Shown here: positions 9,632-56,126 of the stretch, one piece after another
Numbering within the stretch: the stretch's first letter is position 1
Layout: each line of letters begins with the position of its first letter
The notes under the pieces: model-generated
Databases searched by the model: none
Seen by the model: only the letters and a program-made list of their open reading frames with translations
What the model was told of the DNA's origin: nothing
NCBI RefSeq assembly: GCF_000715075.1
Contig: NC_134095.1
Coordinates: 8,418,722 to 8,482,721, forward strand
Length of the DNA stretch: 64,000 bases
Origin: Nicotiana tabacum
Taxonomy: Eukaryota > Streptophyta > Magnoliopsida > Solanales > Solanaceae
Direction of reading: 5' to 3'
Program-made: the position numbers and the translations under genes

Positions 9632-9697
9632 CTAGGAATTTTCATGGTAATTGTGTAATAGATATGAAAGATTCAACATAGATATGAAACTTTTGGA

Positions 9698-10639: not shown

Positions 10640-10894
10640 TTGCAAATCATTATTAATTAAAAAGGATAACATAATTCTAGTGCTGATATCATCTTGACCG
10701 AAGGGACGCACATTTTCAATTAACTGAAGAATATCAATAACTTCTTGAAAATTAGAGTGTTCTTCTTCCCTTGTTTGAATAATGTCAGCCATAATAATAT
10801 CAAGTATAACTTCTTGTAAGTCTCTATTTAATTTAATCACTTTAAGAATAGTGATTAGTACCTTATCAACAAAAAACATGGTATAATAATTCAT
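10640..10894 (-). pseudogene. Pararetroviral ORF4 N-terminal part
   Basis: An ATG at 10894 lies three bases after the stop of the polymerase frame, the tight spacing expected between successive caulimovirid ORFs. About 85 codons look authentic before the frame runs across the rearrangement junction into antisense movement-protein sequence (10639 and below). The matching C-terminal part is displaced to 9264-8821 and 14151-14475. Function is not shown by any motif I can name. Confidence 0.5.
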
Positions 10895-10897
10895 AAT

Positions 10898-13204: not shown

Positions 13205-13901
13205 CAGTAACTTCTTTTAAAAGTTCTATTACATTGTCAGACGTAATAGTTTTTATATTAAGATCATCAAATTGTGATTTCAATTTATAAAATTCGTCAC
13301 TATCACAAGCACAAATATCACCTTTGCAAGCAGTGCAAGCAGTATCAACATTTTTATTATTATCAGAAAAATCAATTAACTCAACTTCAGCTTCAGATTC
13401 AGTCTCTGAGTAATAGTCAGATTCTGATCCCGAAGTGTATAACAAGCCATAAACCTTATCGTGTAACTCATCATCGAGTTCTAAGGTTTTTAGCTTTTGA
13501 AGCTTGCAGTTTGGAGAAATATGACCAAACTTTCCACACTTATAACACTTAATATCAGCGAGATCACGTTTGGATCTATTCTTCGCAAATCGAGTAGATT
13601 TCCTGTTCGCTTTTCTAGTATCACGTTCTTCCTTAGGCCTATATCTAGACCTCTTTTTCTTATACGGGCTATCCGGGTTAGGGTACCTATGATATTTGGT
13701 TTTCTTCTTCCTATTTTGAGTGGAAGTTCCGGGTAAACCAAACTGGGTACAAAAGTCACCTACTTGGGACCTTTCTTTAAGCTTATCTATCTTAAGCTGT
13801 CTAGAAAGTCTTAGCTCATTACATTTTTCACTAAAAAATTCTTTTTGAATATAAATACGGGCCCGGGAACCTGGGCTAAAATCAATTTGGTGTGGAATCA
13901 T
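13152..13901 (-). pseudogene. Pararetroviral capsid protein, C-terminal part with CCHC finger
   Basis: About 249 codons: a strongly basic region (residues 60-115), then a CCHC knuckle (CYKCGKFGHISPNC, about 118-131), then an acidic Ser/Glu-rich tail with a Cys-rich CTACKGDICACDSD stretch. This basic-CCHC-acidic order is the hallmark of caulimovirid coat proteins. The apparent ATG at 13901 overlaps the stop of the preceding fragment (TAATG) and lies within what should be mid-protein, so the N-terminal half is missing here; it sits on the plus strand at 16349-17360. Confidence 0.8.
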
Positions 13902-14119
13902 TAAATATTATTGGGGTCGAAATCCATCTCAGATAGAGAAGGAATATCCTTATCTGAAATATTGTCATTATCTTGAACAATATTTGTTTGAGGGTTAATC
14001 TTAACCCTTTCAACCCTCTTATCTTTGGAATCGGGCTTATCACTAGCAATAGTGTGTAAAGAAGCCGCACGATTGCGAGATGGACCGTAAACTGGTTCAA
14101 CAGGGGAAATATGTTGCAT
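13901..14119 (-). pseudogene. Small pararetroviral fragment upstream of capsid frame
   Basis: This 72-codon frame ends in a stop that overlaps the next ATG (TAATG). Its composition (polar, acidic, ending [10 protein letters not shown]) looks coding. It could be the C-terminal tail of the movement protein or a capsid segment; no motif decides. Its left limit is the rearrangement junction near 14121. Confidence 0.4.
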
Positions 14120-14150
14120 AGCATATGTTTAACAGTCCCTCAAAAAAGTG

Positions 14151-14475
14151 ACAAATTCATTTATATGTGACAGCCCCTCAAAAAAGGATAGTAGAAGAAA
14201 GCACTGTTAAACATATTGCTCGGAGAATATCAATCCAAGATGGAGATAAAATGGATTTGATAAATCAATACTTAGAAGGGTTGAAAAGAAATCTGCTCCA
14301 ATCACTAGATCAGTGTGAAAAATCAGACACTTCAATGAGAAGTGAGACGAGTGGTGATGACCTCGTAGAAGATACTCAACCTATACAGCCAGAAATGATA
14401 TTATCTGACAGAGAAATTGACAAGGTGGAAGAATTCCTCCAACAGATGCAAAATATGGACAAAAAGAAGACTTGA
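14151..14475 (+). pseudogene. Pararetroviral ORF4 C-terminal part (copy 2)
   Basis: The same coding sequence as minus-strand 9140-8821, here in plus orientation and directly followed by the viral promoter, as in the normal caulimovirid order (last ORF, then intergenic promoter). The left junction near 14121-14150 contains a small inverted scrap (GCATATGTTTAACAGT) copied from the complement of 14198-14215, a sign of template switching or foldback repair. Confidence 0.6.
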
Positions 14476-14499
14476 CAGCTTATCAGCCGCCAGGACCCA

Positions 14500-14810
14500 C
14501 TTAAACAGTAGATACACTGTTCATCAACAGTAGAAACACTGTTTATCTACAGTAAAAACACTGTGTAGGGACCCAGATGTGGGACCCATTTTACTATTCA
14601 AGATTCTTTTTTTTTGTTATTTAAGAATGCTTCTTCATTTGAAGAAGGAAGGCCGGAACCCCCCCTCTCTCTCTACTTTCTCTCTCCTCTCTCTCTCTCT
14701 CAACCAACCCCCTTTGTAAACACTTAGTTCATAGCTTAGTTTGTAAATCGAGTTCAAGAATTAATAAAAGTTTTGAAGTTCATCTTCAGGGCCTTGCTTC
14801 TCGGCCTACA
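14500..14810 (+). promoter_or_regulatory. Pararetroviral pregenomic promoter and poly(A) signal
   Basis: Three imperfect dyads of the form ACAGTAnAnACACTGT lie at about 14505-14565. A TATA-like TTATTTAAG (14617-14625), a CT-rich start region (14660-14700) and AATAAA at 14763-14768 follow. The TATA-to-AATAAA distance of about 145 bp suits the terminally redundant RNA of caulimovirids, where the signal is skipped once near the cap and used after a full circle. Confidence 0.65.
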
Positions 14811-14911
14811 AGGTACATATTTATTCTTCTTTTAAGTATTTTTAGTCTCTCTCCCTAGCCGTGACTATGTCCGGCTAAACGGATTCATATCTATGTTGAA
14901 GCACTAATTTC

Positions 14912-15350
14912 TCTTGCATATTAACCATGAAGTATCCAGACTCTTTCAAAATATAAAGAAATTTTAATATAGTTTCTTGGTTTGGTTCCAAGATGGTGGT
15001 ACAGTCGGTTCTGGTACTACTCTTATTGGCTTTGCCTTAGTGGCTACGTCTAGCCAGCTGTGACTTTAAAGCCCGCTGAAGTTGTCAAAAGGGCTATCTC
15101 TTTCACAGTTAGAACTGCTAGACACATGGGCTCAGTAAGAGTATGTATCGGGCTTAGACAGGCCCCTTGCTTGGGTAAAAGGATATAGATCCTTCCATAC
15201 AGTCATTAAACTATAATAGAATTTCCGTATATTTCGAATCCTTATTGGTCGTGCGGACTACCGCCAACCTTTAAAAGTGTACTAAAGCAGCTAGATCTGG
15301 ATGGCCGTGCGGACTACCGCCCGCCTACCTAGATCCTGGTGTAAATTGGT
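14912..15350 (+). repeat. Second copy of the pararetroviral leader
   Basis: This is nearly identical to 9183-9624 in the same orientation. The homology stops at AAATTGGT, just inside the primer site, and jumps to coding sequence, so a deletion removed the primer site and the 5' end of the next ORF. Confidence 0.85.
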
Positions 15351-15353
15351 TAT

Positions 15354-16346
15354 TCTCAGGGATCGTCATACGGATCCTCATCAACCTCTCCAGTAATACA
15401 AAAAGGAAAAAAGAGTTTGATAAACTCAAAGGTACCGCATACAGGAGAATCCTCAGGACATTCTATACATCTGGAAGATATTCCAGAAGACAGTCCGTTA
15501 TACGGACATCTGCAGGCTTATTTAGCATCTAAAAAGCAAAGTGATACTTTTGCTTCAATTGCTAAGGAAGAAGACAATGATGATATCAAGTCATATGAAA
15601 AGTTACCAAAAAGAGAAATGATATTTCTCCTTGAAAACTCTGAGATTCAGAGAAAAGAAGAACCGTGGAAAATATTTCAGAGATATCTGATTAATGGATT
15701 ATACTATCCGGGTGAATCATATAAAACCCGTACCTATTATGAAACTATCCTGATCAGTACAGGTAGTGCAGAATTCCAGCACTTTTCAGGTTATAACACA
15801 AATGAAAATGTTTATAACTTTTCAAAAGTCATTATCAAACAGATTATATCTGTTGAAGAATGGGGTATTTCCACAATGAAAGAAAGGCAGATAAGCCTTA
15901 ATAAATCACCAATGAATTTCACTTATTGGGATTATATTCAAGCATTTGATAGAGTGCTTTATTATAACAATGAAAGACATAAGCATACTTGGTTTATCAA
16001 GGTATGCGCTAAGGTATTTACAGGACCTATCCCTAACTGGTTTTTAAACTGGTGGTCATACCATGGTCCTACTACCAAAATCTTGCCTGAACCATTCCTG
16101 AAATTATACAAAGAATGGACAAAAGCCTCTCCGTTCTTAACAAATTTATATCACGCAGATCATATCTGCTATTTAGAAAAAATTGATCAGATTTACTTCT
16201 TTATTGAATTTTCTATCCCCTGGATCCATAAATGGACCCCGGAAATGGGTTATACGGAAGAACAAATCCCTTGTTTATATAGGGTATTCTACAACAATTT
16301 TTGGGACAAATTGATGAAAACTGATCCCAAAACAATGGTTTTTTGA
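15354..16346 (+). pseudogene. Pararetroviral ORF upstream of capsid, 5'-truncated
   Basis: The frame is open from the deletion junction at about 15350 without an ATG at its start, and ends in TGA at 16344-16346, just after a run of six T (16338-16343). The capsid-like frame continues directly in another phase, so the two were once one long ORF broken by a frameshift in the T run. The protein is rich in Tyr/Trp (GYNTNENVYNFSKVII, WFLNWWSYHGP), as in the N-terminal region of solendovirus-type polyproteins; no enzymatic motif is seen. Confidence 0.6.
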
Positions 16347-16348
16347 TA

Positions 16349-17354
16349 CTTATAGTAAAGAGGATTTGAGTAATATATCTCAAGAATTTTATGAAACTTG
16401 TGCCTTACATAATCAAATTATGTATTTTGTTCCTTGGTTTATAACAACTTATTTACCTCTTTATATAAAGGTATTAGAAAGATCTTATAAAGACGGGAGT
16501 GGTAATATTACTAAAGCAATTTATCCGCCTCAGGCTCCCTTTATTTTACCTAATAATACTGGTATTACTTTCACTGCCTTTCAAAAATTTATTGATGATA
16601 ATGTGGCAGCTATTAGTATTGCAGAAATTAATAAATTGATTTCTCAAAACAATTATTTGGGTTTATATGTTAAAATTTTAGGAGAACATATTGGTTCTCT
16701 TGATAAAAAACTTGATGATTTGACTATTTTAATAAAAAAAATGGGTACTAAGAAAGGACCAACTGATATTGCCTCCACTTCAGGAAGTAAAACAGTTGAT
16801 CAAAACATTCTTACCCATATTCAAAGACCTCCTGAGATTCAGGATTTTAAATTCAAATCTCTTGATGACTTAGCTCAGCTTTTAGATAAAAAGCTTTCCG
16901 GTTTAAATATTAGGCCTATTGATTTATCAAAAAATTTTGCTGATAAAATGGAGACCGTTTCTGATTATAAAACTGAGACTTGGTCAGAGTTTAATAAACT
17001 CAAGGGGATTGTTAAACAAAATCATAGGTATGCTGATAAACCGAGAATGCAGACCTATTATTATCCTCGTCCTACTCCTCAAGATGTGTTGATTGAGGAA
17101 CGAGATTGGAATCAGACTAATACGTCTTATAACGGTTCCGAAATTTATGAATGGAATCTTGATGGTCTAACTGATAGACAATTAACCATTCTCGTACACA
17201 GAATGCTCATGTATTCGACTATCTGTAAAAGTGTTAAAAATACAGATAGAACTATTTGCAAAATGATTATTGCAGGTTTTACTGATAATCATTTATCTGT
17301 AGAGGAAAAGGCGTTCGTTATAAAATTTCTTTCATATCTATTACACAATTGGCA

Positions 17355-17360
<6 letters not shown>
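16349..17360 (+). pseudogene. Pararetroviral capsid region, N-terminal and central part
   Basis: The frame is open without an ATG at its left limit and joins the previous ORF across the T-run shift. The middle is helical (Leu/Ile heptads near residues 90-200) and is followed by SYNGSEIYEWNLDGLTDRQL and CKMIIAGFTDN, the style of caulimovirid capsid core. After HNWHEY (about 17357) it runs into (TA)n and host sequence, so the CCHC part is missing here. Confidence 0.65.

Positions 17361-17402
<42 letters not shown>
17357..17402. repeat. (TA)n tract at the pararetrovirus right border
   Basis: About 22 TA units form the right border. With the TA-rich array at 8588-8770 on the left this places the virus within a TA repeat, a known preference of integrated plant pararetroviruses. 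Confidence 0.85.
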
Positions 17403-17407
<5 letters not shown>

Positions 17408-17549
17408 CTATACTAGTATACTATATATACTACAAAACAAGATTTTTCAAAATTCAAAATGAGGGCCCCACCCCCAATGACCACCAACGGCCATATTGCA
17501 CAAATAACCGTTTTTTTTTTCAATTTACAAAACTAACCTTCTCTAACAC

Positions 17550-17557
17550 TATAAATA
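17550..17557 (+). promoter_or_regulatory. TATA box of the solo-BED gene
   Basis: TATAAATACCCCCTC, as at 5716, followed by a pyrimidine-rich leader (TCAATCTC, CAATTTTCAAG words) up to the ATG at 17669. The block looks like a duplicate of the hAT transposase promoter and leader. Confidence 0.55.
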
Positions 17558-17668
17558 CCCCCTCCCTCTTCTTCATTTCAATACTCAATACTCATTTCTC
17601 AATCTAAATTTCTCTCAATCTCCAATTTTCAAGACTTCAAGTCTCAATCTTAATTTTCAAGTTACATC

Positions 17669-29971: not shown

Positions 29972-29981
29972 AGCAAAATAA

Positions 29982-30330
29982 GAGTCCGAAACTTTTTTTA
30001 ATTATTTTTTGGACAAAAAACACTTTTGTATTACTTTAAAAAAAAGTTACATAAATGAGTAAAATGCAGTATTATACTGCGAATTACTTTAACAGAAATT
30101 TTGCCGTTAAAGTAATTCGCAGTATAGTACTGCGTTTTACTTAAAAAATTATTTTTTGTAATTCGCAGTACTATACTGCGTTTTACTAAGATACATTTGT
30201 AAAAAGCAGTATAATAATGCGTTTTACATTAAATAATTGCGTTGTACTCTGATTTTTGCCCCCACCAATAATGAACTGACATAACAATAATTCAATACAT
30301 AAAACGTAGTATTGTACTGCGTTTTACATA
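29982..30330 (+). repeat. Left terminal inverted repeat of the MULE, with dyads
   Basis: This matches the reverse complement of the right end at high identity for at least 200 bp. It contains the 17-bp dyads at about 30066-30081, 30118-30134, 30164-30180 and degenerate ones at 30207-30222 and 30304-30320. The first two face each other across ATTACTTTAAC/GTTAAAGTAAT arms, so 30066-30134 can fold into one long hairpin. Confidence 0.85.
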
Positions 30331-30461
30331 GAAAAATTCTACACCCCAACGTCGGACTTGCCTTATTTAAAGGCGTTTCAATTTTATAAAAATTCATTCA
30401 ATACTTTATTTCAAACTTACGTTCATACTTCTCTCTTCTTCTTATCAATTATTTTTTTACA

Positions 30462-33270
30462 ATGTTTGAAGTGGCAAAAATAAGGGTTTCACTATATTGG
30501 GTTGGGGGGGGAGGTTGTGTTGGAGAATAACTCTGTGAGGTATAGCTCACCTCCACAATATCATGTTAAATTGCCGCTTACTATGAAGTACGATAAATTG
30601 GTATCGTTGTTACGTAAAAAAATGAATGAGAGGAGGCGTTTGGTTAACCTTAAAATAACCGGTAGATTTCCGTATTCAGTGACTCCGCAGGGGTTTGCTT
30701 ATTATTCTGAGTTTAACATCGAGGATGATGAAACTCTTAGAGATTTTTTACTGATTCCGGATGAATATAGGGAATTTATTGTAATAAAATTATTGGAAAT
30801 GTACGTCAAGGTGGAAGACGTTCCCAATAATGAGGGCGTGCATAGTAGGGATAACCCCCAGTCATCGGGTGGTTATTTTGGAGCAGTTTTTGCCGGACAG
30901 ATTGGTGATGAAAGAGCTTGCCTTGATTTAAACTTGTCACCACCGGCGAATGAGCAACCACAAAATAATTTTTCGACTTTAGATAATCAACAAGACGACT
31001 GGTAAACTTTAATTTTACTACGCTTTAGCGATGTTTAATTTATGTTTTAATTGGATTTGTATTAACACTCATATTTTTCATAGGGGGTACCGTCCGGATA
31101 TGAATTTTACAAGTTATGACCCTGCCCCTAGTTGAAATATGTGTAGTTTTGGAGTATTGGACCATGGTGGTCCATCTGGGAGTCATCACCAACAAGAAAA
31201 TATCCATCATGAAACTTCAAGACAATACGACTTGTAAGTAAAGTGATATAGCTATATCTAAAGTATTTATCTAGTTGGGTAACTTATCATTTTGTTCTTT
31301 ATGTGCAGTGAAAACGAGCTTCTTGAAGCTCCTGACCTCACACAGTTGCCCATAGACGACGTATTTACTCGTGATTTGGCAGATGCACGGAGTCAGGAAG
31401 ATGATAGTGATTATGACAACAATGCGGATGAGTCTGGGGATGACACACCCTTCCATGATGAGGGTGATGATAAGGAGGAAGTGAATGTTGAACCTGAGTT
31501 GACGAGGGAGCATGTTCCTCCACCTCCAGTTAGACCAAGAGTGTATGAGTCCCACGTGCCATTTCATGAGCGAAATATTCCCTACCTTGATAATTTGCCA
31601 AGCATGCCGAACGTGGATGCCCTCACAAGGGATGATGATGAATTTCGGTCAGCGATGTGGGATGAGTCTAGACCAGCTGTTCTGACAAAGGGCATGTATT
31701 TCCCCGATAAAGCTCGCCTAATTAGGGCTGTAAAAATCTACAGTATAAGAGAGTGCCGTGAGATGACGGTAAGTGAGTCAACTACGGAGAAATACAAGGT
31801 TGTATGCCGTAAAGACTTTATGGGTTGTCACTGAATGTTGCGTGCCACCAAGAAGAAATCAGGTTTGTGGAAAGTGGGTAAATTTATTAGCGAGCACAGA
31901 TGTGAAATGGACACATACAGTGAGAATCACTTCAACTTGGATGTGGACTTGATTTCTCTTGTCTTGATTCCATATTTGGAAGTGTCCATTAGGTTCAAGA
32001 TTAAAGAGTGTATTACAGCCGTCCACCAGGAGTATGGTTGTACTATAACCAAAAGAAAGGCATATCTCGGTCGCAAACGTGCCTTTGAACTTATTTATGG
32101 CGACTGGGATAAGTCTTTTTCAAATCTGCCCAGGTACATGGCCGCACTGCAATACTTTAACCCCGGGACTGTTGTTGAATGGAGGCGTGAGCGGAGTTAG
32201 GACAGACCCAAATATATTTTCAACTATGTGTTCTGGTCATTTAAACCAATAATTGATGGTTTTGTGCATTGTCGTCCTGTTATTTCATAGACAGTACTCA
32301 TGTCTATGGAAAGTATGATATTAAGCTTTTGATTGCAGTTGCAGTAGATGCCAACGGGCAAATGTTTCCACTAGCTTTTGCCATATGTGCCAACGAAAGT
32401 GAAGAGACATGGACGCTTTTTTTGAACCACTTGAAGCAGCACGTTGTCAAACAGCGTTCAGGTATTTGTCTAATATCTGATCGACATGGTGATATTTTAA
32501 GTTCTGTACGTCACTTGCCTGAATGGCAGGAACCATATGCATACCACCGTTACTGTGTGCATCACCTGAAAGCCAATTTCCAGAAGAAATATCCTGACAA
32601 GGCATTGCATGACTTAATGTGGCTGGCTGCAACTGAGCACCACAGTGCAAATTCACGAGGCGCATGGAAGCGATCCGGTAGTTAGAACCACGAGCCTATA
32701 CTTGGTTGATGGGGCATGAGCTTCATATGTGGACATTGCATGCTGATGGCGGCAGACGATGGGGAGCCCTCACTACAAATGTGTCGTAGTCATTCAACGG
32801 CTTGTTGAAGTCTGCCCGTGGACTGTCTGTCACTGCCATGGTCCGCATGACATTCAAACAGAATGCGGAGAGGTTTGTTGAAAGGCATGCAGCTGCATCA
32901 GCATTGATGGACAGGAGTGTTCAATTTATGCCAATACCCATGAGAAGATTTGAAAGGTCCAGGAGGCGAGCACAGTGGCATTCATTTCTTCAGTACGATC
33001 ATGAACGGGGTGTTTTTGAAGTTAAGACCGCTATCCGCGGACACCGTGGGAATAATCTACAGACGGTGAATGAAAATAGAAGGTTATGTTGATGTGGGAA
33101 ATGGACCATCTACCACATGCCATGCGCACATGCGTTGAAGTGCTTTCAACAAGTTGGATATGGGGCAACAAACTATATCAAGGATACCCCTAGTCTTTTA
33201 TTTTGGTATTGTTTTTTGTAATACATGTTTTTACTTGTGTATGTTGCAATATATATCAAATAAAATTATG
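30462..33270 (+). pseudogene. MULE transposase (MuDR type), decayed
   Basis: The likely start is the ATG at 30462 (MFEVAKIRVSLYW), broken at once by a G run near 30497-30505. Introns 31002-31083 and 31234-31308 have GT-AG borders. Domains: N-terminal ubiquitin-like/PB1-like region; acidic linker; MuDR DNA-binding region (GMYFPDKARLIRAV to HRCEM); MULE DDE core with IDSTHVYG and LISDRHGDIL; SWIM finger (CxC then MPCAHAL, about 33085-33135). Defects: TGA after APS (about 31132), TGA at 31832-31834, TAG at about 32198, a frameshift near 32270-32290, TAG at about 32789 in place of the Glu in the NVSxSFN motif, and TGA inside the SWIM finger. At least three stops stand where Trp is expected. No functional enzyme can be made. 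Confidence 0.85.
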
Positions 33271-33491
33271 TTCCACAATTTGAAATGAGTGAAGAAAAAG
33301 CTATTTAATTGTAGGAAATGTAATATGTAAAGCGTGGTTTGATAGTTTCATATAACAACACAAGCACTTAAACTTAACTTGCACTTCAATTAAAATAAAG
33401 CATTACTACAGCACAAACACAAACATAACAGGCCAACATAATAAAAATACATGAAATATAAAAAATACACTAAACACATACAAGCAAATGT

Positions 33492-33959
33492 TTAGTCCCG
33501 GTTGTCATTTATTCTCCGCTCCAACCACTTAAATCGTTCTTCCATTCGTTCTTTTTCTTCTTCTACCTCTTTCAGTTTCGCCTTCACCTCCGCAAGTTCC
33601 CGTTTATATTTTTCTTTTCGTTCCTTTTGTGCTTCACAATTCCATTGTGCTTTCCATTTTTCTTCACCCACCTCCTTCAGTTTCGCCCTCATTTCTACAA
33701 TAATTCTATCGTTTTCTCTTTGTGTTTCCTGTTGGCATAAACACATATTATGAAGAAACTGCAGTTGTTCTCTGTAGCATTCCTGATAACATGGTTCATC
33801 AACCCATTCCTGAAAATCACAAATAGGTTCGCCGGGAACCTTGTATAACTGGTTCATACAGCAACAGTAGCGACGTCCAACTTTACCATCGTCCCAACAA
33901 TTTTGCATCGAGCATTTTTTTCCACAGTTGCACTTTGGTGCACGAAGAGGTTGAGCCAT
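33492..33959 (-). CDS. GRF-type zinc-finger coiled-coil protein carried by the MULE
   Basis: An intact frame of 155 residues from ATG (33959) to stop. Residues 10-56 fit a GRF zinc finger: C10 and C12 (KCNCGKKC), Arg-Arg-Tyr then C32-C34, and C47 followed by DFQEWVDE. Residues 80-150 are a Glu/Lys-rich coiled coil with heptads (ELAEVKAKLKEVEEEKERME). GRF fingers bind single-stranded nucleic acid in enzymes such as APE2 and TOP3A; plants carry many short transposon-linked GRF proteins of unknown role. It lies tail-to-tail with the transposase, about 220 bp beyond its end. It is the only intact frame of the element. Function within transposition is not known to me. Confidence 0.75.
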   Translation of the reverse strand: MAQPLRAPKCNCGKKCSMQNCWDDGKVGRRYCCCMNQLYKVPGEPICDFQEWVDEPCYQECYREQLQFLHNMCLCQQETQRENDRIIVEMRAKLKEVGEEKWKAQWNCEAQKERKEKYKRELAEVKAKLKEVEEEKERMEERFKWLERRINDNRD

Positions 33960-34080
33960 TTGATGAAATATTTGCTTTTAGTAAAAAAAAAACCTTACTT
34001 TTAATGAAATATTGCTTTTACTAATTTTTGAGCACACAAAATAACTATAATGATGCCATTATTTATAGGCGAGACAAAAT

Positions 34081-34390
34081 ACATAAAGCGTAGTATAGTA
34101 CTACGTTTTATGGAGTTGTCTTGTCGTTCTAAAAAAGAAGAAAACCATGTGAAAAAGTTGGTTTATTGCAGAAAAATTTAACACATAAAGCGTAGTATAG
34201 TACTACGTTTTATGAAGTTGTCTTGTCGTTCTGAAAAAGATGAAAACCATGTGAAAAAAGCTGGTTTATTGCAAAAAAATTTAACACATAAAGCGTAGTA
34301 TAGTACTACGTTTTATGGAGTTGTCTCGTCGTTCTAAAAAAGATGAAAACCATGTGAAAAAAGCTGGTTTTAGTTATCCTTTGTGCAGTG
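34081..34390. repeat. Three 102-bp direct repeats with dyads, inside the MULE
   Basis: Units start ACATAAAGCGTAGTATAGTA at 34081, 34183 and 34286 and differ by a few bases. Each holds one dyad CGTAGTATAGTACTACG, a variant of the TIR dyad (TAG for CAG). Two copies of TTATCCTTTGTGCAGTGATG follow at about 34375 and 34428, and another half-dyad near 34456. The array lies between the GRF and PMD genes, upstream of the GRF gene start, so it may include its promoter. Confidence 0.85.
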
Positions 34391-34504
34391 ATGGTTTTAG
34401 TTCTATTGTTTGTTTTTCTGTGTACTGTTATCCTTTGTGCAGTGATGGTTTTAGTTCTAGTATAATACTACGTTTTGCAATGTTTGTGTTTCTTGTGTAC
34501 TATA

Positions 34505-35278
34505 GGAGGGGCAGAAAACCACATATGTCCACCGCTGGGCCCATGCTCGCCCGACACATTCTCCTATATAGGTATGCGAGAACAGCAACACTCAACTGTA
34601 CTGGGGTAAACCATCCAGCTGCTGAAGATGATGAAGAAAGCGCATACTCACTTTACTCCCTGAAGTGTTCGGGAACAAGACACACCCGAAAAGCAGGAGC
34701 AGCGCCAACCGCGTGTACCTCTCAATGTGGAGATCCTCAGTCTCGCCGGTAATGTCTGGGTGCAAAAATGCCATATGATCTCTGATGGCTGACAAAGCAA
34801 CGCGACTGCCCCCAGCGTCACCCTGAGGTCTATAACCAGTAAGATTCCCCATCATATCCAAAAACTGTGCACGCGTCATGGATCTAATGTACTGGGGCAG
34901 TGCTACGGCCTGTCCATCTACGCGCAGCCCGTACAAAACCTGAACATCCTCCAGCGTGATGGTGGCCTCTCCAGTGGGCAAGTGAAAAGTGTGCGCCTCC
35001 GGTCGCCACCGCTCTACCAAGGCCGTGATGTGAGACCAATCAAGCTGCATCCGTCCAAGCTCAAAAATCGTATAGAAGCCCGTAGCCTGTAGGCGCGCGA
35101 CTACACAGGCATGGAAATGATGCTACCCAATGAACTCCCACAAATCGTCAGGTCTCCTAGGGCGGAGAGGCTGCATCGATAGCTGTCCCTCTCATACAAA
35201 GGAGGACCTATGGTCGCCCTGCAACACTAGTAGCTGATCCTCGGCATGTCCGGAATGCGCAGGCGGAGGAAAGTCCAT
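34505..35278 (-). pseudogene. Plant mobile domain (PMD, MAIN-like) gene in the MULE, decayed
   Basis: From an ATG at 35278 (MDFPPPAHSGHAEDQLLVLQ) two in-frame stops (about 35194 TGA, about 35129 TAG) precede the longest intact part, 35050-34592. That part has the PMD core: SHITALVERWRPEAHTFHLP, GEATITLEDVQVLYGLRVDG, then FGCVLFPN. After a TGA at about 34592 the frame shifts and continues VAVLAYLYRRMCRASMGP to a TAG near 34505. PMD proteins such as MAIN and MAIL1 act with PP7-like phosphatases in transposon silencing and gene regulation, and PMD relatives are known inside plant transposons. This copy is non-functional. Confidence 0.8.
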
Positions 35279-35307
35279 GTCGTCTACTATAATTTAAACA
35301 AAATTAA

Positions 35308-36440
35308 TTGTGTGTGTTAGCTTAATAAATTAAATAATTAATTATGTTTACAATTGGACTGAATAATTATGTATGGGTTCCAGACTCATTTTTTGAGGCC
35401 CAGTAGCACCGAGTTATCATTAATAATTATGCGTGTCAATTCAACATTTTTAGAATTGTGTGTGTTAGCTTAATAAATTAAATAATTAATTATGTTTATA
35501 ATTGGACTGAATAATTATGTATGGGTTTCAGGCTCATTTTTTGAGGCCCGGTAGCACCGAGTTATCCTTAATTATTATGCGTGTCAATTTCAACATTTTT
35601 AGAATTGTGTGTGTTAGCTTAATAAATTAAATAATTAATTATGTTTACAATTGGACTGAATAATTATGTATGGGTTCCAGGCTCATTTTTTGAGGCCCGG
35701 TAGCACCGAGTTATCCTTAATTATTATTCGTGTCAATTTTAACATTTTTACAATTGTGTGAGTTAGCTTAATAAATTAAATAATTAATTATATTTACAAT
35801 TGGACTGAATAATTATGTATGGGTTCCAGGCTCATTTTTTGAGGCCCGGTAGCACCGAGTTATCCTTAATTATTATTCGTGTCAATTTTAACATTTTTAG
35901 AGTTATGTGTGCTAGCTTAATAAATTAAATAATTAATTATGTTTACAATTGGACTGAATAATTATGTATGAGTTCCAGGCTCAATTTTTAAGGCCCGGTA
36001 GCACCGAGTTATCCTTAATTATTATGCGTGTCAATTTTAATATTTTTAGAATTGTGTGTGCTAGCTTAATAAATTAATAATTAATTATGTTTACAATTGG
36101 ACTGAATAATTATGTATGGGTTCCAGGCTCGATTTTTGAGGCCCGGTAGCACTGAGTTATCCTTAATTATTATGCGTGTCAATTTTAACATTTTTAGAAT
36201 TGTGTGTGCTAACTAATAAATTAAATAATTAATTATGTTTACAATTGGACTGAATAATTATGTATGGGTTCCAGACTCGATTTTTAAGGCCCGGTAGCAC
36301 CGAGTTATCCTTCATTATTATGCGTGTCAATTTTAACATTTTTACAATTGTGTGTGCTAGCTTAATAAATTAAATAATTAATTATGTTTACAATTGGACT
36401 GAATAATTATGTATGGGTTCCAGGCTCAATTTTTGAGTTA
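35308..36440. repeat. 149-bp satellite-like tandem array inside the MULE
   Basis: Seven and a half units of about 149 bp. Landmark words in each are GTTAGCTTAATAAATTAAAT, ACAATTGGACTGAATAATTA and GGCCCGGTAGCACCGAGTTA. Unit starts are near 35311, 35459, 35603, 35752, 35903, 36054, 36200 and 36349. Units are highly alike, so the array has grown or been homogenised recently. Confidence 0.9.
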
Positions 36441-36564
36441 ATTTTACAACATATAGGAATTTGTTACTTTTGTAAGTTTATTGTTATAAATTAAATAATT
36501 AATTTTGTAAAGTGTAATTGGATAGAGTTTGCAATTACTACATACTTAAACTACATAGACCCTA

Positions 36565-36725
36565 CGCTAAAAGACTCTACATTTTACTACGCTAAAAGGC
36601 TCTATATTTTACAACACTAACAAGCTCTATATTTTACAACACTAACAGACTCTATATTTTACTACACTAAAAGGCTCTATATTTTACTACGCTAAAAGGC
36701 TATTTATTTTACTACGCTAAAAGGT
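36565..36725. repeat. 26-28-bp minisatellite in the MULE
   Basis: Six degenerate units of the type AGGCTCTATATTTTACTACG with CTAAA, running up to 36725. The rest to about 37080 is AT-rich and holds no gene. Confidence 0.8.
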
Positions 36726-37198
36726 CACTATTACATATAAAAACAACTAACATAAAATACAAATATGAACAACAAACAAAATAAATAATATTAATTTTTT
36801 AACAATACAAATAATTTATCAAATTTTAACAATTTTTTGTACCAAAGCTAATAAATCAATCCGGGTATAAATAAGATACAAATTTAAACACAAACATAAC
36901 ACAAATTAACATGGAAACACATTAAACAATACAAATATGCATGTACTATACGAGTTTCGACATAAACAAAATTGAAATACCTCGATTTAAGTTTTTTGAA
37001 TTTGATTGAAATCGAATTTTTGCACCCGAAAGAAGGAATCCAAAGTTTGTCTTGTATGTGAGACTTACACTCCTTGCTCTTTAGGTGATGGGTGGGGCCC
37101 AAATTTTTTTTAAGTTTGACGCGGGGGTGGGGGGACCAGCAGAATCGAAGGTGTTTGGTTTTCTTCGGTTCAGTGGTCCAAAGAAGAAGAAGAGGCTA

Positions 37199-37501
37199 TA
37201 TTTTATTGAAGTTGTTCGCAGTATTATACTGCGTTTAAGTATAACGCAGTATAATACTGCGAACAGCTTTAATAAAATATAGGTATAGCATCTTAATAAA
37301 ACACAATATAGTACTGCGAATTACAAAAAAATAATATTTTAAGTAAAACGCAGTACTATACTGCGAATTACTTTAACAGCAAAATTTTCGTTAAAGTAAT
37401 TCGCAGTATAATACTGCGTTTTACTCATTTATGTAACTTTTTTTTTAAAGTAATACAAAAGTATTTTTTGTCCGAAGAATGATTAAAAAAGTTTCGGACT
37501 C
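37199..37501 (-). repeat. Right terminal inverted repeat of the MULE, with dyads
   Basis: The reverse complement of the left end. Dyads CGCAGTAnnnTACTGCG lie at 37217-37233, 37245-37261, 37349-37365 and 37401-37417, plus a degenerate one near 37305. Two long hairpins are possible, 37199-37279 and 37349-37417. The end GGACTC is followed by the target duplication AGCAAAATAA. Confidence 0.85.
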
Positions 37502-37673
37502 AGCAAAATAAATATATAACCAACTCAAACTTATTTGAATGGATTGATAAGGAATTATGTTGTACAATATAATGCGGTGTCCCAAATAGTCCCTCTACAG
37601 ATCTGTGTTGTCTCTGCAGAAAGCAAAGCCTTTAATCCCATTGCCATTTGCATAGCAAAATCAAAAGCCAACA

Positions 37674-41560: not shown

Positions 41561-43444
41561 TTAAACGCCACATGTTTCCATTTTCCCCTTGGCCTTCTTA
41601 TCAGAGGTAGCATCTTCTCGATTCAGTTCTAGCTTCTTATATTTATACCAAGATGCACACAGTAAATAAAACCCAAAGTTCAGCACACTGACTCCTGCTA
41701 GCAACCAATAGAAGTAGTCGAGCTTGTCTCTGTTCAAGTTGTTATTAGCTAACCAGCCACCACTCACCTTGTTAATTACACTCACCACCAATGAGCTTGT
41801 GAAGTACCCAAATGCCAGAGAAGACCAAGAAATGGCCATACTCAGTGATTTCATGCCTGATGTGCTCTCTGCATAAAAGAAATCAAGCAACCCCACCAAT
41901 GTAAATATTTCAGCTGTTGCAAATATTACGTATTGGTATCCGAGCCAGAACACACTCATAGGTAATGGACTGGCTGAATCAACCATGTTGTGCTCAATGG
42001 CAACTGATTTCCTGTGACTTTCTACAACTGCAGCTACTGCCATAGAAACTGCTGTAATTACTAGTCCAACACCTATACGTTGGAGTTGTCGAATCCCAGA
42101 AGGGATCTCTGTAAGTTTTCTTGCTATTGGAACGAAAATACGATCATAGACTGGGATCAGGAAGAGTTGGAACAATTGTGGAATTACAGTTATTGAAGGC
42201 CCTGGGATCTCAAAGTTTCGGATTTTTCTGTTCATTGTTAGACTTTGCTGAATAGTGAAGGTCTGGAGTTGAGCCATGCAAGTGTTCATGAAGACAGTGC
42301 TCAGTATTATTGGGAGCATTCGGACTACAATCTTTGTTTCTTCAACTTGTGAAATAGTGCAGAGGCTCCATTGTCCATGTGCACTTGATGTAGATGCTTC
42401 TTGTTTTGTCCTCAGTATGGCTGCCCTGTCCAAAAATCTGTACATATTGTGGGAATTTGGTTAGCTGGAGCAATATATCAACCAAAAGATCAGAAAAAGA
42501 GTGATGTTAAGTACTTGAATTGATCAGTCCTTTGAAGAATCTCTGTTCCATTTTCAGGTTCTCTACTCTTGATCTGATGTAAATCTTCTTTGTTTTGTGG
42601 TAATGGGAGATTTCTGTTTCTAAAAGCTGCAACAAAAACCTGCGTGATACGCATAAGAGGGCTTCCTTTAGGAATGTTGTTTCTGTAAAATGGTTTTCCC
42701 ATGGTTAAGAGCAGGATTGCCAAACCAACTGCTATACAGCAGACACCAAAAGACCAATCCCATCCTTGGCTATCACTTATCCAGACTAAAAATGTAACAC
42801 CAAGCATGACTCCAACGGTGATAAAGAACAGTAGCCAATTGAAGTAACTTGATAACTTAGCAGCCTCTTTCGGATCCTTTTCATCAAATTGATCGGCACC
42901 CAAAGATGGCAAAGCTGCTTTGACACCACTGTTTCCGAGTGCTATTAGATAAATGCCTCCATACAAGATTGCCAATTGGCCTATATCTGCAGATTCACAT
43001 TGATTGCTTTGGCTTAAGGGTACATTCTTGCAAGGAAATGGTCTCAGTTGGCTGAAATGTGCTTGAACAGCTAGAAGTGCATATCCCTAACAAATGAAAG
43101 AATGATCAAAGTCAAATCTTGATTCTGCATAGACTCTTTTTATTTTCTTGCTTAGCCAAGAGGTAGAAATAAGAAATACCAAGACTTGAATGCTGCCAAA
43201 CAGAACATAAGTCTTGAATCTGGAGAAGTAAGTATCTGAGAGAAAGGCTCCAAATAATGAGAGCAAGAATGCGGTTCCCATGAAATTTGTGACAGTAGTG
43301 GCAGATTTTGTTAAGCTGAAGTTCATATACCCATAAAAGTAAGTCACCAGGCTTACACCAATTGAAGTAAAAGCCATGGTATCAATCCCTGCCACAGCTG
43401 CATGATCAGAAGCTAAAATATCAAAACTCAGAAGTTTGGATGAG

Positions 43445-48876: not shown

Positions 48877-51800
48877 TCAGTGTTCAACAATGTTGATCAA
48901 ATCCAAACAATGTTGAAACTTGATCGCAGTCACCACCTTTGTCAGCATATCAGCAGGATTCTCCGTAGTATGAATTTTCTTCACTGTGACTCCACCTTCT
49001 TCTATGATTTCTCGTACGAAATGATACCGAACATCAATGTGCTTCGTCCTTGCATGATACACTTGGTTTTTCGCTAATTGAATAGCACTTTGACTATCAC
49101 AAAAAATTGTGATACCTTTTTGTTCAACACCAAGCTCCTTTAGCAATCCTTGAAGCCAAATTGCCTCTTTCACAGCCTCTGTAATAGCCATGTACTCTGC
49201 CTCTGTTGTAGACAAAGCAACTGTTGACTGCAAAGTAGACTTCCAACTAACTGGTGCCTTTGCAAAAGTAAACACATAACCAGTAGTTGATCGTCGTTTG
49301 TCCAGATCACCCACAAAATCTGAGTCACAATATCCAACTACAGACTGATTGTCTTCCTGCTCAAAAACTAACCCGACATCTACAGTATTATGAATATACC
49401 GTAGAATCCACTTCACAGCTTGCCAATGCTCCTTCCCTGGATTGTGCATATATCTGCTAATAACTCCAACAACTTGTGAAATGTCAGGTCTTGTGCAAAC
49501 CATTGCATACATCAAGCTACCAACAACATTTGCGTATGGTACCTTTGACATATACTCTCCGTTCAGCTTCATCCATTGGCGACATATTAGTACTTAGATT
49601 AAAATGGGGAGCAAGTGGAGTACTAACTGGCTTAGTCTTGTCATCTATGCCAAAACGTTGTAGTACTCTTTTCAAATATTCTTTCTGAGATAAACAGAGT
49701 TTCTTTGAACGTCTATCTCTTATTATCTCCATGCCAAGAATTTTCTTTGCCTCACCCAAATCCTTCATCTCGAACTCCTTCTTCAGTTGAATTTTCAACT
49801 TATCAATTTCTTCTGAATTCTTGGAAGCTATCAACATATCATCAACATATAGGAGAAGATATACAAAGGAACCATCTTTAAGCTTGTGCAAATACACACA
49901 ATGATCGTATTTGCTTCTCTTGTACCCTTGCCGCAACATAAACTCGTCAAATCGCTTGTACTATTGTCTAGAAGATTGTTTCAATCCGTACAACGATTTT
50001 TCAAGTTTGCACACCACATTTTCTTTTCCAGCAACTTTGAATCCTTCTGGCTGAGTCATGTAGATTTCCTCCTCCAAGTTTCCATGTAAAAACGCAGTTT
50101 TTACATCCATCTGAACTAGTTCCAAATCCAATTGTGCTACCAAAGCCAACATAATTCTAATGGAGGAATGTTTTACAACTGGAGAAAATACTTCATTGTA
50201 ATCAATTCCCTCCTTTTGAGCATATCCTTTGGCCACCAATCTTGCTTTGTAGCGAACATCTACTTGGTTAGGAAATCCTTCCTTCTTTGCAAATATCCAT
50301 TTGCACCCAATTGCTTTCTTTCCCTTCTGGAGATTGGCCAATCTCCATGTATGATTCTGATGAAGGGACTGTATTTCATCATTCATGGCAATCCTCCACT
50401 TATCTTCTTCTGAACTTTGGACTGCGTCTTTATAAGTGATCGGAATATCATCAGCTACAATTGAGGTTGCACAAGCAACTGTCTCTATGAGACGAACAGG
50501 TTTCGTTATTGTTCTTTTTGGCCTGCTGGTTGCTATTGATTCAAGTTGTTGTTGAGGTTCCTGAGTTGGAATCTCCTCTACTGGCTCTCCTTCCAGAGGG
50601 TAATCTTCATTTGTTTCCTCCTCTGCTTCTTGTGTAGGAAAAATAAATTTTCCCTCAAACTCCACCTGCTTAGAAGCACCTTTATTTTGTTTGGTGTCTT
50701 CTGTTACCTTATTTACCATAGCAGATTCATCAAAGGTAACATCTCTGCTGAATATTACTTTCTTTGTCATAGGACACCATAAGCGATATCCTTTGACTCC
50801 AGAAGTAATTCCCATAAAAATAGCCTTCTTTGCCCTTGGATCCAATTTTGACTCCGTCACATGATAATATGCAGTTGAGCCAAACACGTGCAAAGAGTTA
50901 TAATCTACAGCAGGTTTTCCATACCATTTTTCAAATGGTGTCTTGCCATCAATAGCAGCAGATGGTAGACGATTAATGAGGTGACATGCATATGTAATTG
51001 CCTCAGCCCAAAATTCTTTGCCCAAGCCAGCATTGGACAACATACACCGTACCTTCTCCAGCAAGGTCCGGTTCATACGTTCTGCCACTCCATTCTGTTG
51101 TGGTGTATGTCTAACAGTGAAGTGTCGGACGATGCCATCATTTTCACAGACCTTATTGAAATGATCATTTTTGTATTCACCTCCATTGTCTGTGCGAATA
51201 CACTTGATCCTCCTGCCTGTCTGATTCTCCACCATCGTCTTCCATTTGAGAAAAATTCCCAACACTTTATCTTTGCTCTTCATTGTATACACCCATACTC
51301 TTAGGAAAAAATCATCAACAAAGGTTACAAAATAGTGCTTCCCACCCAATGAAGGTGTTTTGGAAGGACCCCAAACATCAGAGTGTATATAATCCAAAAT
51401 GCCTTTAGTATTATGGATCGCTGTACCAAATTTAACCCTTGTCTGTTTCCCTTTAACACAATGCTCACAAAATTCCAAGTTGCAAGCTTTTACTCCTTTT
51501 AACAATCCTTGATCTGATAGAGTTTTCAAGGATTTTCCTCCAGCATGTCCCAAGCGCATGTGCCATAGCTTGGTTGCTTCTGCCTCTTTGTCGTCACTGG
51601 ATGTCACTGTCGCTGTCCCAATAACTGTACTGCCACGATAGCGGTACATATTATTATTCTTCCGATTAGCCTTCATTACCACTAGTGCACCGGAGCATAC
51701 TCTCATCACTCCATTTTCTGCAATGATTTTGAACCCTTTTGATTCCAGGGCTCCCACAAAGATGAGATTCTTCTTCAAATCCGGTACATATCGAACATCT

Positions 51801-52897
51801 GTTAATGTTCTGATCATTCCATCATGGTTCCTTAATCGTATTGAACCAATGCCATATGAGGTAAGAGGGCTGTTATCCGCTGTGTGGATGACTCCATATT
51901 CTCCTTCTTGAAATTCCACAAACCAGTCCATGTTGGGACACATATGATAGCTACAAGCCGAGTCCATCAACCATATGTCTGATGATGTTAATGACTCTGT
52001 TGTAACTAATGAGAAGTTTGAATCATCACAATCAGCTACATTTGAATCCATAATGGCCTTTCCATTGTTATGTTTGGCCTTATTCTTCAACTTCGGACAG
52101 TCTTTCTTCCAGTGCCCCTTTTCTCGACAAAAGGCACATTCATCTTTGCTGGGTCTGGATCTTGACTTGGATCTTCCCTTCTTTGTCCTCGTTTGATTTT
52201 GAGGACGACCCCTTACAAACAGTGCTTCTCCTTCTCCGCCCTTCTGTTTTTCTCGCTTTCTTTGTTCATAGCTGTACAAAGCCGAACAAACTTCTCTGAG
52301 AGAAACTTCGTCATTTCCATGGAGTAGAGTAGTTTCAAGGTGCTCGTACTCATCAGGAAGTGACGCCAACAACATCAAGGCCAACTCACCATTATCATAA
52401 GTTGTATCCATATTTTGCAAATCTGTGACCAACTTATTGAAACTGGTGATATGTTCATTCATCGTGGTACCAGGAACATAGGTGAAGTGAAACAGTCTCT
52501 TCTTCATGTACAATTTATTTTGACTGTTTTTCTTCAAAAATTTATCATCCAGTGCTTTTTATAATTTACTTGCAGAAGTTTCCTTTGTGTATGAATATTT
52601 CTGCTCTCTAGCAAGGTAGGATCGAATGGTACCGCAAGCAACACGGTTGATAATTCTCCAATCTTCTCCTCCAATAACATCTGGTTTCTTTTCTTCAATG
52701 GCCAGATCTAGCCCTTGTTGAAAAAGGACATCTAGAACCTCGCCTTGCCACATCCCAAAATGTCCGGACCCGTCAAAAATTTCTACCGCAAATTTCGCAT
52801 TTGACACAATTCTTGTCATAAGCGAAGATGCCAATGATGACGTATTGTTGACACTTGATGTAGATTCTTCTTGTTTATTGTCTCCCATATTTGACAC
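48877..52897 (-). pseudogene. Copia gag-pol polyprotein, two stops and one frameshift
   Basis: Start ATG at 52897 (MSNMGDNKQEE). Gag with CCHC knuckle CAFCREKGHWKKDC; protease region with MDSACSYHM; integrase with HMRLGH...CEHC finger and D-D-E core (HSDVWGPS, DNGGEY, NGVAERMNRTLLEK); reverse transcriptase with LYGLKQ and YVDDMLI; RNase H with STTEAEYMA and KHIDVRYHFVREII. Breaks: TAA at 52559-52561 in gag, TAG at 49961-49963 after LKQSSRQ where Trp is usual, and a frameshift near 49570 between the two frames 49939-49517 and 49572-48877. All domains remain recognisable. It cannot yield a full polyprotein. Confidence 0.9.
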
Positions 52898-53767: not shown

Positions 53768-56126
53768 CTAAACTATGTTCGTCTCAATCTTCCCCTTGGC
53801 CTCCTTACTAAGGAGAACATCTTCTGGATTCACATCTACCTTCTTGTATTTGTACCATGAAGCACAGAGTAAATAAAACCCGAAATTGAGCACACTCAAT
53901 CCTGCTAACAACCAATAAAAGTAATCAAGCTTGTCTTTGTTCAAGTTGTTATTATCCAACCAGCCACCACTTACTTTGTTCACTATACTCACCACCACTG
54001 AACTTGTGTAGTATCCAATTGCCAGTGAAGACCAAGAAATCGCGGTACTTAGCGCTTTCATGCTTGATGAGCTTTCTGAATAGAAGAAATCCATCAATCC
54101 CACAAATGTAAACATATCAGCCAAACCAAAGATTGCATATTGATAGCCTAGCCAAAAGACACTCATTGGCAATGGAGTGGCGGATTCAACCATGTTGTGT
54201 TTAATAGCAACTGTTTTCCGGTGTTTTTCTACAATTGCAGCTACTGCCATTGACATAGCTGAAAGTACTAGGCCAACACCTATACGTTGCAGCTGTCGAA
54301 TACCTGTTGGAATTCCTGTGAATTTCCTTGCTATTGGAATGAAAACGCGTTCATAGATAGGAATCAGGATAATCATAAATAATAGTGGAATTGCTGGAAT
54401 TGAAGCCCCTGGAACTTCAAACTTGTGGATTTTTCTGTCCATTGTTGTGCTTTGTTGGATAGTGAAAGTTTGGAGCTGAGCCAAACAAGTGTTCATGAAA
54501 ACAGTACTCAATATAATTGGGAGCATTCTGACTACAATTTTGGTCTCTTCAACTTGTGTTACTGTACAAAGTTTCCATGGTCCATGTGCACTTGATGTGA
54601 ATGTGTTCTGGTCAGTCCTCATTATCGTTGCTCGGTCCAAAAACCTGCAAATATTTCAGGGCTTTATCATTTCTCTTATATCAAATATCAACTTGAACAT
54701 AAGTTGAGAGTGTCAAATGTCTTAACATACCTGAATTGGTCAGTTTTTCGAAGAATCTCTGTATCGTTTCTAGATTCTTTATCATGAATCTCATGTTCAT
54801 TCTCTGGCAAAGGTAGATTTCTGTTTCTAAGTGCTACAACAAACACCTGCATAATACGCGTAATGGGGCTTCCATTTGAGACATTGTTTCTGTACAATGA
54901 TTTCCCCATAGTTAGGAACAGAATCGCCAATCCTACAACAATACTGCAGGCAGCAAAAGACCAATCCCATCCCTGATTCTCACTTATCCAAACTACAAAT
55001 GTGACACCAAACAACGCGCCAGTGGTGAGGAAGAACATAAGCCAATTGAAGTAGCTTGATAATTTAGCAGCCTCTTTAGGGTCCTTCTCATCATATTGAT
55101 CAGCTCCTAAAGGTGGTGTAGCTGCTTTAACTCCACCGGTCCCTATTGCAACTAGATAAAGTCCCGCGTATAAGATTGCCAATTGGCCTTTATTTGCAGA
55201 CTCGCATTGATTCAGTTGGCTCAAGGGTACATCCTTACAAGGAAAGGGTCTTAATTGCCTGAAATGTGCTTGCACTGCTAGAAGTGCATACCCCTGAAAG
55301 TTAAGCATGCACTTTAGCGTTCGTTTGACTTAGCTCATTAAAGTAGCTGATAAGCATTAAGTGCCGAAAAACACTTTTAGGTGCTGAAGTTGCTTGTATG
55401 CAGTTGCATGATTAAGATAGAAGTGTTGAAGCTGAAATTGGGGGGGGGGGGGGACTAATTAAACTTAAACCTAACACGGAGAAATTAACTTACAACAACT
55501 TCAAAACAGCCAAATAGAACACAAGTCTTGAATCTGGACAAGTAAGTGTCTGAAAGGAAGGCTCCAAATAATGCTAGCAAGAATGCTGTTCCCATGAAGT
55601 TTGTAACAGCAGTGGCTGATTTTGTTATGTTGAAGTTCATAAATCCATAAAAGTAAGTCACCAAGCTCACACCAGTTGCGAAGAAAGCCATGACATCGAT
55701 CCCCGCCATAACTGCATGGTTAAAAGATCACAATATTATTAAGAAGAATTAACCAATAACCGCCCACCTAATTTCCTAAACTAAAAATAGCCCCAAATGT
55801 ATAATATATATATATATATATATAATTCACGTATAATATGTGTATAACTGTGTATAATCTATGTATACCGGCTAAAAAAAGTAAACAATAAATTTGGCCG
55901 GCTATTTGGATAACAATCCCAGAGTCACAAAATATTTACCATATACAAATAAAGTTGCTCTATTTCCCCCTACCCTTGGTGGTTGTTTGGGTTCAGTGTT
56001 GACATCTCTGCACATTCCCTGCATATAATTAACACAAAAAAAAACTAATTAGCCATAAATGCCATACATGATTTTGAGTCATTGAAACATTTTTCTTTTA
56101 GACATATTCTTAGTGGACCTTACCAT
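53768..56126 (-). CDS. NRT1/PTR-family (NPF) transporter, copy 2, five exons
   Basis: Exons: 56126-56124 (ATG only), 56018-55940, 55711-55494, 55293-54731 and 54644-53768; GT-AG borders; 579 residues. Exon sizes equal those of copy 1 except exon 4. Motifs: GGNRATLFVYVMAGIDVMAF, FMGTAFLLALFGAFLSDTYL, the YDEKDPKEAAKLSSYFNW loop, and FFYSESSSSMKALSTAISWS. These are the PTR/POT family boxes of 12-span proton-coupled carriers of nitrate, peptides or hormones. The usual first-helix Glu motif (ExxER) is replaced by AGIDVMAF, so coupling may differ. The subfamily is uncertain, perhaps NPF4. It is a tandem partner of copy 1, 9.5 kb away, with the copia element between. Confidence 0.85.
55441..55453. 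repeat. Poly-G run in NPF copy 2 intron
   Basis: Thirteen G in a row inside the intron between exons 3 and 4. A (TA)n tract lies at about 55803-55825 in the previous intron. Confidence 0.9.

What the first reader, a model, noticed from the sequence alone, without database searches (positions are those of the whole stretch)
29982..37501. Complete MULE carrying DDE/SWIM transposase, GRF-finger gene and PMD gene between long TIRs
The sequence shows a 10-bp flanking repeat (AGCAAAATAA), inverted ends beginning GAGTCCGAAAC, and three protein-coding units in two orientations. GRF fingers and PMD domains are each known in plant transposons, but having both as separate minus-strand cargo with a MuDR-type transposase in one bounded element is unusual. 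PMD proteins act in transposon silencing, so a transposon-borne PMD could be an anti-silencing or self-regulating module.
Basis: partly seen in the sequence, partly recalled or inferred. Interest (0 to 1): 0.8.

Follow-up and report, generated by a model that had tools for sequence, protein, structure and literature searches.

The report
Broken copy of three-gene tobacco transposon
This is a decayed copy of a common tobacco jumping gene that carries two extra genes besides the enzyme that moves it; related families keep the same three genes together, and each family marks its ends with its own DNA motif, which hints at self-regulation.

Summary
The element is real: exact 10-bp target duplications, ~210-bp inverted ends, MULE transposase (plus), GRF-like/coiled-coil and PMD genes (minus). 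It is not complete: transposase and PMD are interrupted by stops and frame changes, and compared with copy L070 the window lacks 305 bp of transposase and 2,034 bp with the PMD 3' exons. Only the GRF frame is open.

Of 23 loci with these ends, window included, 8 carry all three genes, 11 transposase plus one cargo gene, 3 transposase only, 1 none. Five loci picked by divergent GRF copies alone (three further families) all carry the trio. Between families dN/dS is 0.18-0.57 (transposase), 0.29-0.37 (PMD), 0.42-0.86 (GRF). GRF was exchanged between families A and B.

Not noticed before: a family-specific dyad motif at both ends and, in A, C and D, upstream of GRF (family A: 159 sites in 16 elements, 1 in 43 kb of flanks). 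It follows the transposase/PMD trees, not GRF, so its reader is probably the transposase. PMD anti-silencing is untested, and was already proposed for MULE-borne PMD (Ikeda 2017).

The parts
29972..29981 (.). left target-site duplication AGCAAAATAA
   Evidence: exact match to 37502-37511
37502..37511 (.). right target-site duplication AGCAAAATAA
29982..30192 (+). left terminal inverted repeat, with motif sites at 30065, 30118, 30164 and one further in at 30305
   Evidence: conserved in family copies
37290..37501 (-). right terminal inverted repeat; motif sites at 37349 and 37402 inside it, 37217 and 37245 just inside the element
30462..33200 (+). broken MULE transposase: exon 1 to 31001 (frame changes in the G run near 30501-30508), exon 2 31084-31233, exon 3 from 31309; end approximate; stops and frame changes; 305-bp gap near 33177 against L070
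   Evidence: relatives P0127, P0129
33492..33959 (-). GRF-like zinc finger / coiled-coil gene, open, 155 aa (P0001)
34089..34472 (.). four dyad-motif sites (34089, 34191, 34294, 34456) upstream of the GRF start, three of them in a 103-bp tandem repeat (34081-34370)
   Evidence: internal sites in 9 of 9 GRF-bearing two-ended copies and 0 of 7 without GRF
34503..35278 (-). 5' part of a PMD gene: exon 1 with two in-frame stops and a frame change near 34595; further exons deleted (gap of 2,034 bp against L070)
35306..36437 (.). 149-bp tandem repeat (7.6 copies) between PMD and the right end
   Evidence: also present in L070 and other copies
36562..36724 (.). 25-bp tandem repeat (6.5 copies)

Best explanation
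Shown: the window holds an internally deleted, broken copy of a high-copy tobacco MULE family (A). Full-length relatives (about 8.3-9.8 kb) carry a transposase, a GRF-like/coiled-coil gene and a multi-exon PMD gene with an RG-rich tail. Three further families carry the same trio, and the genes differ between families with dN/dS below 1. GRF was exchanged between families A and B. Each family has its own short dyad motif, concentrated at both ends and, in A, C and D, also upstream of GRF. Inferred: an element protein reads the motif; the transposase is the likeliest reader, since the motif follows the transposase and PMD trees and not the GRF tree. The motif would then serve both end recognition and joint control of the genes (transposase from the left end, PMD from the right end, GRF from its own upstream sites). 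PMD and GRF would be lasting accessory genes that help the element act or escape silencing; which of these is not shown.
For: Trio in 8 of 23 loci chosen by end similarity, and cargo never without transposase among them; trio in 5 of 5 loci chosen by GRF. Between-family dN/dS 0.18-0.57 transposase, 0.29-0.37 PMD, 0.42-0.86 GRF. Within family A, PMD variants shared by two or more copies are 20 N: 21 S against a neutral 2.83:1 (p=6e-4), singletons 102:40. Tree conflict GRF against PMD/transposase, AU p 2e-8, 3e-9, 5e-4. Motif: 12 sites in the element, 0 in the rest of the window; 159 in 16 elements against 1 in 43,151 bp of flanks; in the shared inverted repeat, outside CpG, motif columns vary 1.9% against 3.6% (p=0.0019); family-specific motifs in B-D.
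Against: No binding, expression or methylation data. Families C and D rest on two and one loci, B on two. Within family A the selection test is not significant for transposase (49:23) and has no power for GRF (9:1). Close pairs give dN/dS up to 0.85 (transposase), 0.62 (PMD) and 2.4 (GRF). Upstream of GRF the motif columns are not more conserved than their surroundings (8/301 against 101/3502, 7 of 9 copies used), nor at the left end when CpG is counted (3.2% against 3.0%). Family B has one (L080) or no (L081) site upstream of GRF. The right end lies about 2 kb from the PMD start in the window, so a PMD promoter there is a guess.
Confidence: 0.55

Rival explanations
1. The GRF/coiled-coil protein, dimeric through its long helix, is the dyad reader and regulator, a VANC-like role.
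For: Dyad motif and a confidently predicted ~94-residue helix after a hairpin (mean pLDDT 73.8); motif sites upstream of GRF in families A, C and D.
Against: A and B share a recently exchanged GRF yet have different motifs; B and C share the motif yet have distant GRFs (GRF dS A-B 0.12-0.17, B-C 0.70-0.76). The zinc-finger part of the model is of low confidence.
Confidence: 0.15
2. GRF and PMD are passively captured gene pieces (Pack-MULE-like cargo) without a role for the element.
For: MULEs are known to capture genes; many copies of both genes carry stops.
Against: The same trio in four families; dN/dS below 1 between families in both cargo genes; relatives of the window PMD include 25-member and intact 278-aa Nicotiana proteins; full coding capacity of GRF in two of nine family-A copies beyond the window's (L066, L070).
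Confidence: 0.15
3. The palindromes are repeats of the ends without a protein reader: by-products of tandem duplication or hairpin/small-RNA sources.
For: Some lie in tandem units (46-bp and 103-bp arrays) and form hairpins with neighbours; the internal sites are not more conserved than their surroundings.
Against: Confined to ends and GRF upstream region; motif columns of the inverted repeat half as variable outside CpG; motif differs between families while the end sequence and a TTAACGG...CCGTTAA stem persist.
Confidence: 0.15

Closest known systems
MULEs with PMD-C fused to the transposase (grasses, Amborella; Ikeda et al. 2017, PMC5418596, passages read)
   Same: A MULE carrying a plant mobile domain; an anti-silencing role was suggested there
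   Different: Here PMD is a separate, oppositely transcribed multi-exon gene in a eudicot, beside a GRF-like gene; the PMD clade was not determined
VANDAL21/VANDAL6 of Arabidopsis with VANC anti-silencing proteins (PMC5735166, PMC10398659, passages read)
   Same: Multi-gene MULE-type element; family-specific short motifs in non-coding regions, often in tandem repeats, that differ between related families
   Different: Long TIRs with dyad motifs; accessory genes are GRF-like and PMD; no homology to VANA/VANB/VANC tested; motif follows transposase/PMD and not the small accessory gene; the VANC21 motif YAGTATTAY occurs 5 times in the window element but is not the repeated unit
MuDR of maize (recalled; MULE survey PMC6446971, passages read)
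   Same: Long TIRs, SWIM-type MULE transposase, an extra gene
   Different: Two extra genes, GRF-like and PMD; mudrB homology not tested

Membership tests
Mutator-like element (MULE) | 8-11 bp target-site duplication | tested here: met
   10 bp exact in the window and 8 of the 16 other two-ended family-A loci; one with a mismatch, one 9 or 11 bp, six none found
Mutator-like element (MULE) | long terminal inverted repeats | tested here: met
   about 210 bp, 92%
Mutator-like element (MULE) | MULE transposase domain | tested here: met
   PF10551 E=7.8e-17
Mutator-like element (MULE) | intact transposase (autonomous copy) | tested here: not met
   stops and frame changes in the window copy; L059 has a 642-codon open stretch and L069 is open apart from one stop over the same part
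Plant mobile domain protein | PF10536 match above its cut-off | tested here: met
   114.1 bits, cut-off 34.9, profile 1-144 of 347
Plant mobile domain protein | clade PMD-C (MULE/genic) against PMD-A (Gypsy) or PMD-B | not tested
   no named reference PMDs were at hand
GRF zinc finger | PF06839 match above its cut-off | tested here: inconclusive
   none for the window copy; relative P0003 E=3e-4, below cut-off
VANDAL | VANA/VANB/VANC proteins | not tested
   no VAN protein sequence was at hand
VANDAL | YAGTATTAY as the repeated non-coding motif (VANC21 target) | tested here: not met
   5 in the element, 8 elsewhere in the window; the repeated unit is a different dyad and B-D have other motifs
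Pack-MULE | captured gene pieces without a transposase | tested here: not met
   transposase sequence in 22 of 23 TIR-chosen loci, and in each of the 19 that hold cargo

The most novel reading that the evidence does not exclude
A group of Nicotiana MULEs has independently evolved a VANC-like, sequence-specific self-protection circuit: each family writes its own dyad code at its ends and, in most families, before GRF; an element protein reads the code, PMD with its RG-rich tail counteracts the host MAIN/MAIL1 silencing branch, and GRF is a module traded between families.
Probability: 0.2. Interest if true: 0.85.

Novelty: new variant of a known kind. Interest (0 to 1): 0.6.

Why it matters
If it holds, PMD and GRF are lasting parts of a transposon group and not chance cargo, which makes the open idea that transposon-borne PMDs counter silencing directly testable. 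Motif change on a conserved end scaffold, together with exchange of one gene between families, would be a second, independent case beside VANDAL of how transposons specialise their recognition code.

Tried and rejected
(1) GRF as dyad reader: set back by the tree conflict. (2) Identity with the VANC21 motif: YAGTATTAY occurs 5 times in the element (0 of 500 shuffles reach that, mean 0.46), but those sites sit inside the dyads, 8 more lie elsewhere in the window, and families B-D have other motifs. (3) PMD structure: AlphaFold mean pLDDT 53, so no fold search was run. (4) CGCAGTANNNTACTGCG in IMG/VR: 49 stretches, one place each, read as chance. (5) GRF selection within family A: 9 N: 1 S shared variants, no power. 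(6) Genome-wide linkage of PMD with GRF: the PMD search of the own genome did not complete. (7) PMD clade: no named reference sequences. (8) A decay pattern made only of C-to-T changes behind the stops was considered by eye and dropped, since several stops do not fit it. (9) Literature: searches listed no paper on a MULE with separate GRF and PMD genes; the 20 papers shown in each have zero occurrences of the GRF terms. The library is open-access PMC papers; Repbase and subscription journals were not searched.
Full report
OBSERVATION. The two 10-bp direct repeats (29972-29981, 37502-37511) are exact, the ends are inverted and start GAGTCCGAAAC, and about 210 bp at each end are inverted copies. 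Pfam finds the MULE domain in 32257-32682 and PMD in 34595-35122. The minus-strand ORF 33492-33959 is open for 155 aa; it has no Pfam GRF hit itself, its relative P0003 a sub-threshold one. The transposase has three exons by GT-AG borders, with stops and frame changes. PMD has two in-frame stops and then a frame change.

THE FAMILY. The window lies in a 3,996,098,646-base assembly at C16:8418722-8482721. Contig lengths of C1, C8 and C22 equal those listed for proteins named Nicotiana tabacum, so I take the species to be tobacco. The left end as query gave 843 candidates; the 40 that were scored match at 94-100% over nearly the whole query. I fetched 20 stretches by end similarity alone and later two more. 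With the window that makes 23 loci. Cargo by tblastn: all three genes in 8 (window, L060, L063, L066, L069, L070, L077, L078); transposase and PMD in 8 (L059, L061, L062, L067, L068, L071, L072, L075); transposase and GRF in 3 (L058, L073, L079); transposase only in 3 (L064, L065, L076); none in 1 (L074). In L065, L067, L075, L076 and L079 the second end was not seen or is partial, so genes beyond the stretch may be missed. Sixteen two-ended elements (L074 left out) were aligned with L070: they are colinear, and the genes that are lacking fall in internal gaps. The window lacks L070 positions 3198-3503 and 4723-6757. TSDs among 17 two-ended loci: exact 10 bp in 9 (window, L058-L063, L066, L070), one mismatch at L071, 9 or 11 bp at L072 depending on the end taken, none found in 6 (L064, L068, L069, L073, L074, L077).

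OTHER FAMILIES. A GRF search of the genome (P0001) gave 3,892 candidates, 150 scored, 75-100% identical; one with the distant relative P0005 gave 2,965 candidates, 150 scored, 65-97%. By GRF alone I fetched L080 and L081 (family B, GRF 82% to the window), L084 and L086 (family C, 41%) and L085 (family D, 45%). All five carry transposase and PMD in the same order. In B, C and D GRF has the transposase orientation; in A it is inverted. This fits the Nicotiana gene models P0006 and P0131, which join transposase and GRF-helix pieces in one orientation. Ends: L081 about 8.7 kb with a similar but not exact duplication, L084 about 8.6 kb with an 8-bp one; L085 has inverted repeats of 94 bp (88%) but its left end is degenerate; L080 and L086 were not resolved at both ends.

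SELECTION AND EXCHANGE. dN/dS between families: transposase 0.18-0.26 (A against B, C, D) and 0.28-0.57 (among B, C, D); PMD exon 1 0.29-0.37; GRF 0.42-0.86. Within families it is 0.85 (transposase, B), 0.33 and 0.62 (PMD, A and B), 0.33 (GRF, B) and 0.97-2.4 (GRF, A). Copies decay after insertion, which should push these values up. Within family A, PMD variants in two or more copies are 20 N: 21 S, singletons 102:40, neutral 2.83:1 (shared against neutral p=6e-4, against singletons p=0.008); transposase 49:23 and 233:81, neutral 3.18 (not significant); GRF 9:1 and 31:11, neutral 3.66. For A against B, dS is 0.12-0.17 in GRF, 0.96-1.08 in PMD and 0.79-0.97 in transposase. The GRF tree joins A with B against C and D; the PMD and transposase trees join B with C against A; each rejects the other grouping (AU p 2e-8, 3e-9, 5e-4). 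GRF was therefore exchanged between the A and B lineages; the direction is open.

THE MOTIF. In family A the core YAGTANNNTACTR, mostly inside CGYAGTANNNTACTRCG, occurs 12 times in the window element and not in the other 56.5 kb; shuffles of the element give a mean of 0.04, maximum 2 of 500. Sixteen elements hold 159, their flanks (43,151 bp) 1. Sites lie at similar distances from both ends, and upstream of GRF in 9 of 9 GRF-bearing elements and 0 of 7 others. In the shared inverted repeat, outside CpG and the first 11 columns, motif columns vary 1.9% against 3.6% (p=0.0019); homopolymer runs in the rest may add to this. Counting CpG, the left end shows no difference (3.2% against 3.0%), and upstream of GRF (7 of 9 copies used) there is none outside CpG either (2.7% against 2.9%). 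CpG columns vary about 8% in and outside the motif at the left end, three times the other columns, which suggests methylation. Families B and C have CGCTATATATAGCG at the PMD end and TATAGCG half-sites at both ends; D has GCGCTCTTTAAAAGAGCGC and TATAGCGC. The GAGTCC end and a TTAACGG...CCGTTAA stem recur in all four families, though the stem is mutated in C and not seen at the right end of D, whose left terminus is degenerate. TATAGCG on either strand: L081 (B) 11 sites, all at the ends; L084 (C) 16, 14 at the ends and 2 upstream of GRF; L085 (D) 14, 12 and 2; none elsewhere; L070 (A) none; mononucleotide shuffles average 1.1-1.4. L086 (C) has four at the end seen and two upstream of GRF. L080 (B) has one site upstream of GRF, L081 none.

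MECHANISM. Long MULE TIRs hold transposase-binding sites and promoters (abstract of PMC3310237 in the listing). Host PMD proteins MAIN and MAIL1 are needed for transposon silencing (PMC5418596 and PMC7156037, passages; PMC9899485, abstract and outline). A transposon PMD could interfere with them; this is untested here and was suggested before (PMC5418596, PMC8616336, passages). The full PMD gene of family A continues into an RG-rich tail that the window copy lacks. The GRF relative is predicted as a hairpin and one ~94-residue helix.

NOVELTY. PMD on MULEs is known as fusions in grasses and Amborella (PMC5418596), and eudicots are said to have mainly genic PMD-C (PMC7156037, passage). My searches listed no paper with PMD and GRF as separate genes of one MULE. 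I rate it a new variant of a known kind.

Noticed in passing
8821-17607: ORFs on both strands that by eye resemble an endogenous pararetrovirus (movement-protein-like 9668-10639, reverse-transcriptase-like 10898-13216); seen in the ORF list only
   Followed up: no
5929-8377: Overlapping ORFs that by eye resemble an hAT transposase
   Followed up: no
48877-52558: ORFs that by eye resemble a Ty1/copia polyprotein, minus strand
   Followed up: no
41561-43086 and 53768-55329: Two similar gene pieces that by eye resemble NRT1/PTR transporters, minus strand, with the copia-like ORFs between them
   Followed up: no
1368-1642: 40-bp tandem repeat, 6.9 copies, 95% matches
   Followed up: no
P0128, P0004 (Nicotiana gene models): Public gene models join pieces of this transposon group to host exons: P0128 has a TAZ zinc finger ahead of the transposase, P0004 a GRF-like start ahead of an unrelated tail
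   Followed up: no
G000, GRF copies: GRF-like genes are very numerous in the tobacco genome (3,892 and 2,965 first-look candidates with two queries; only 150 of each scored)
   Followed up: partly
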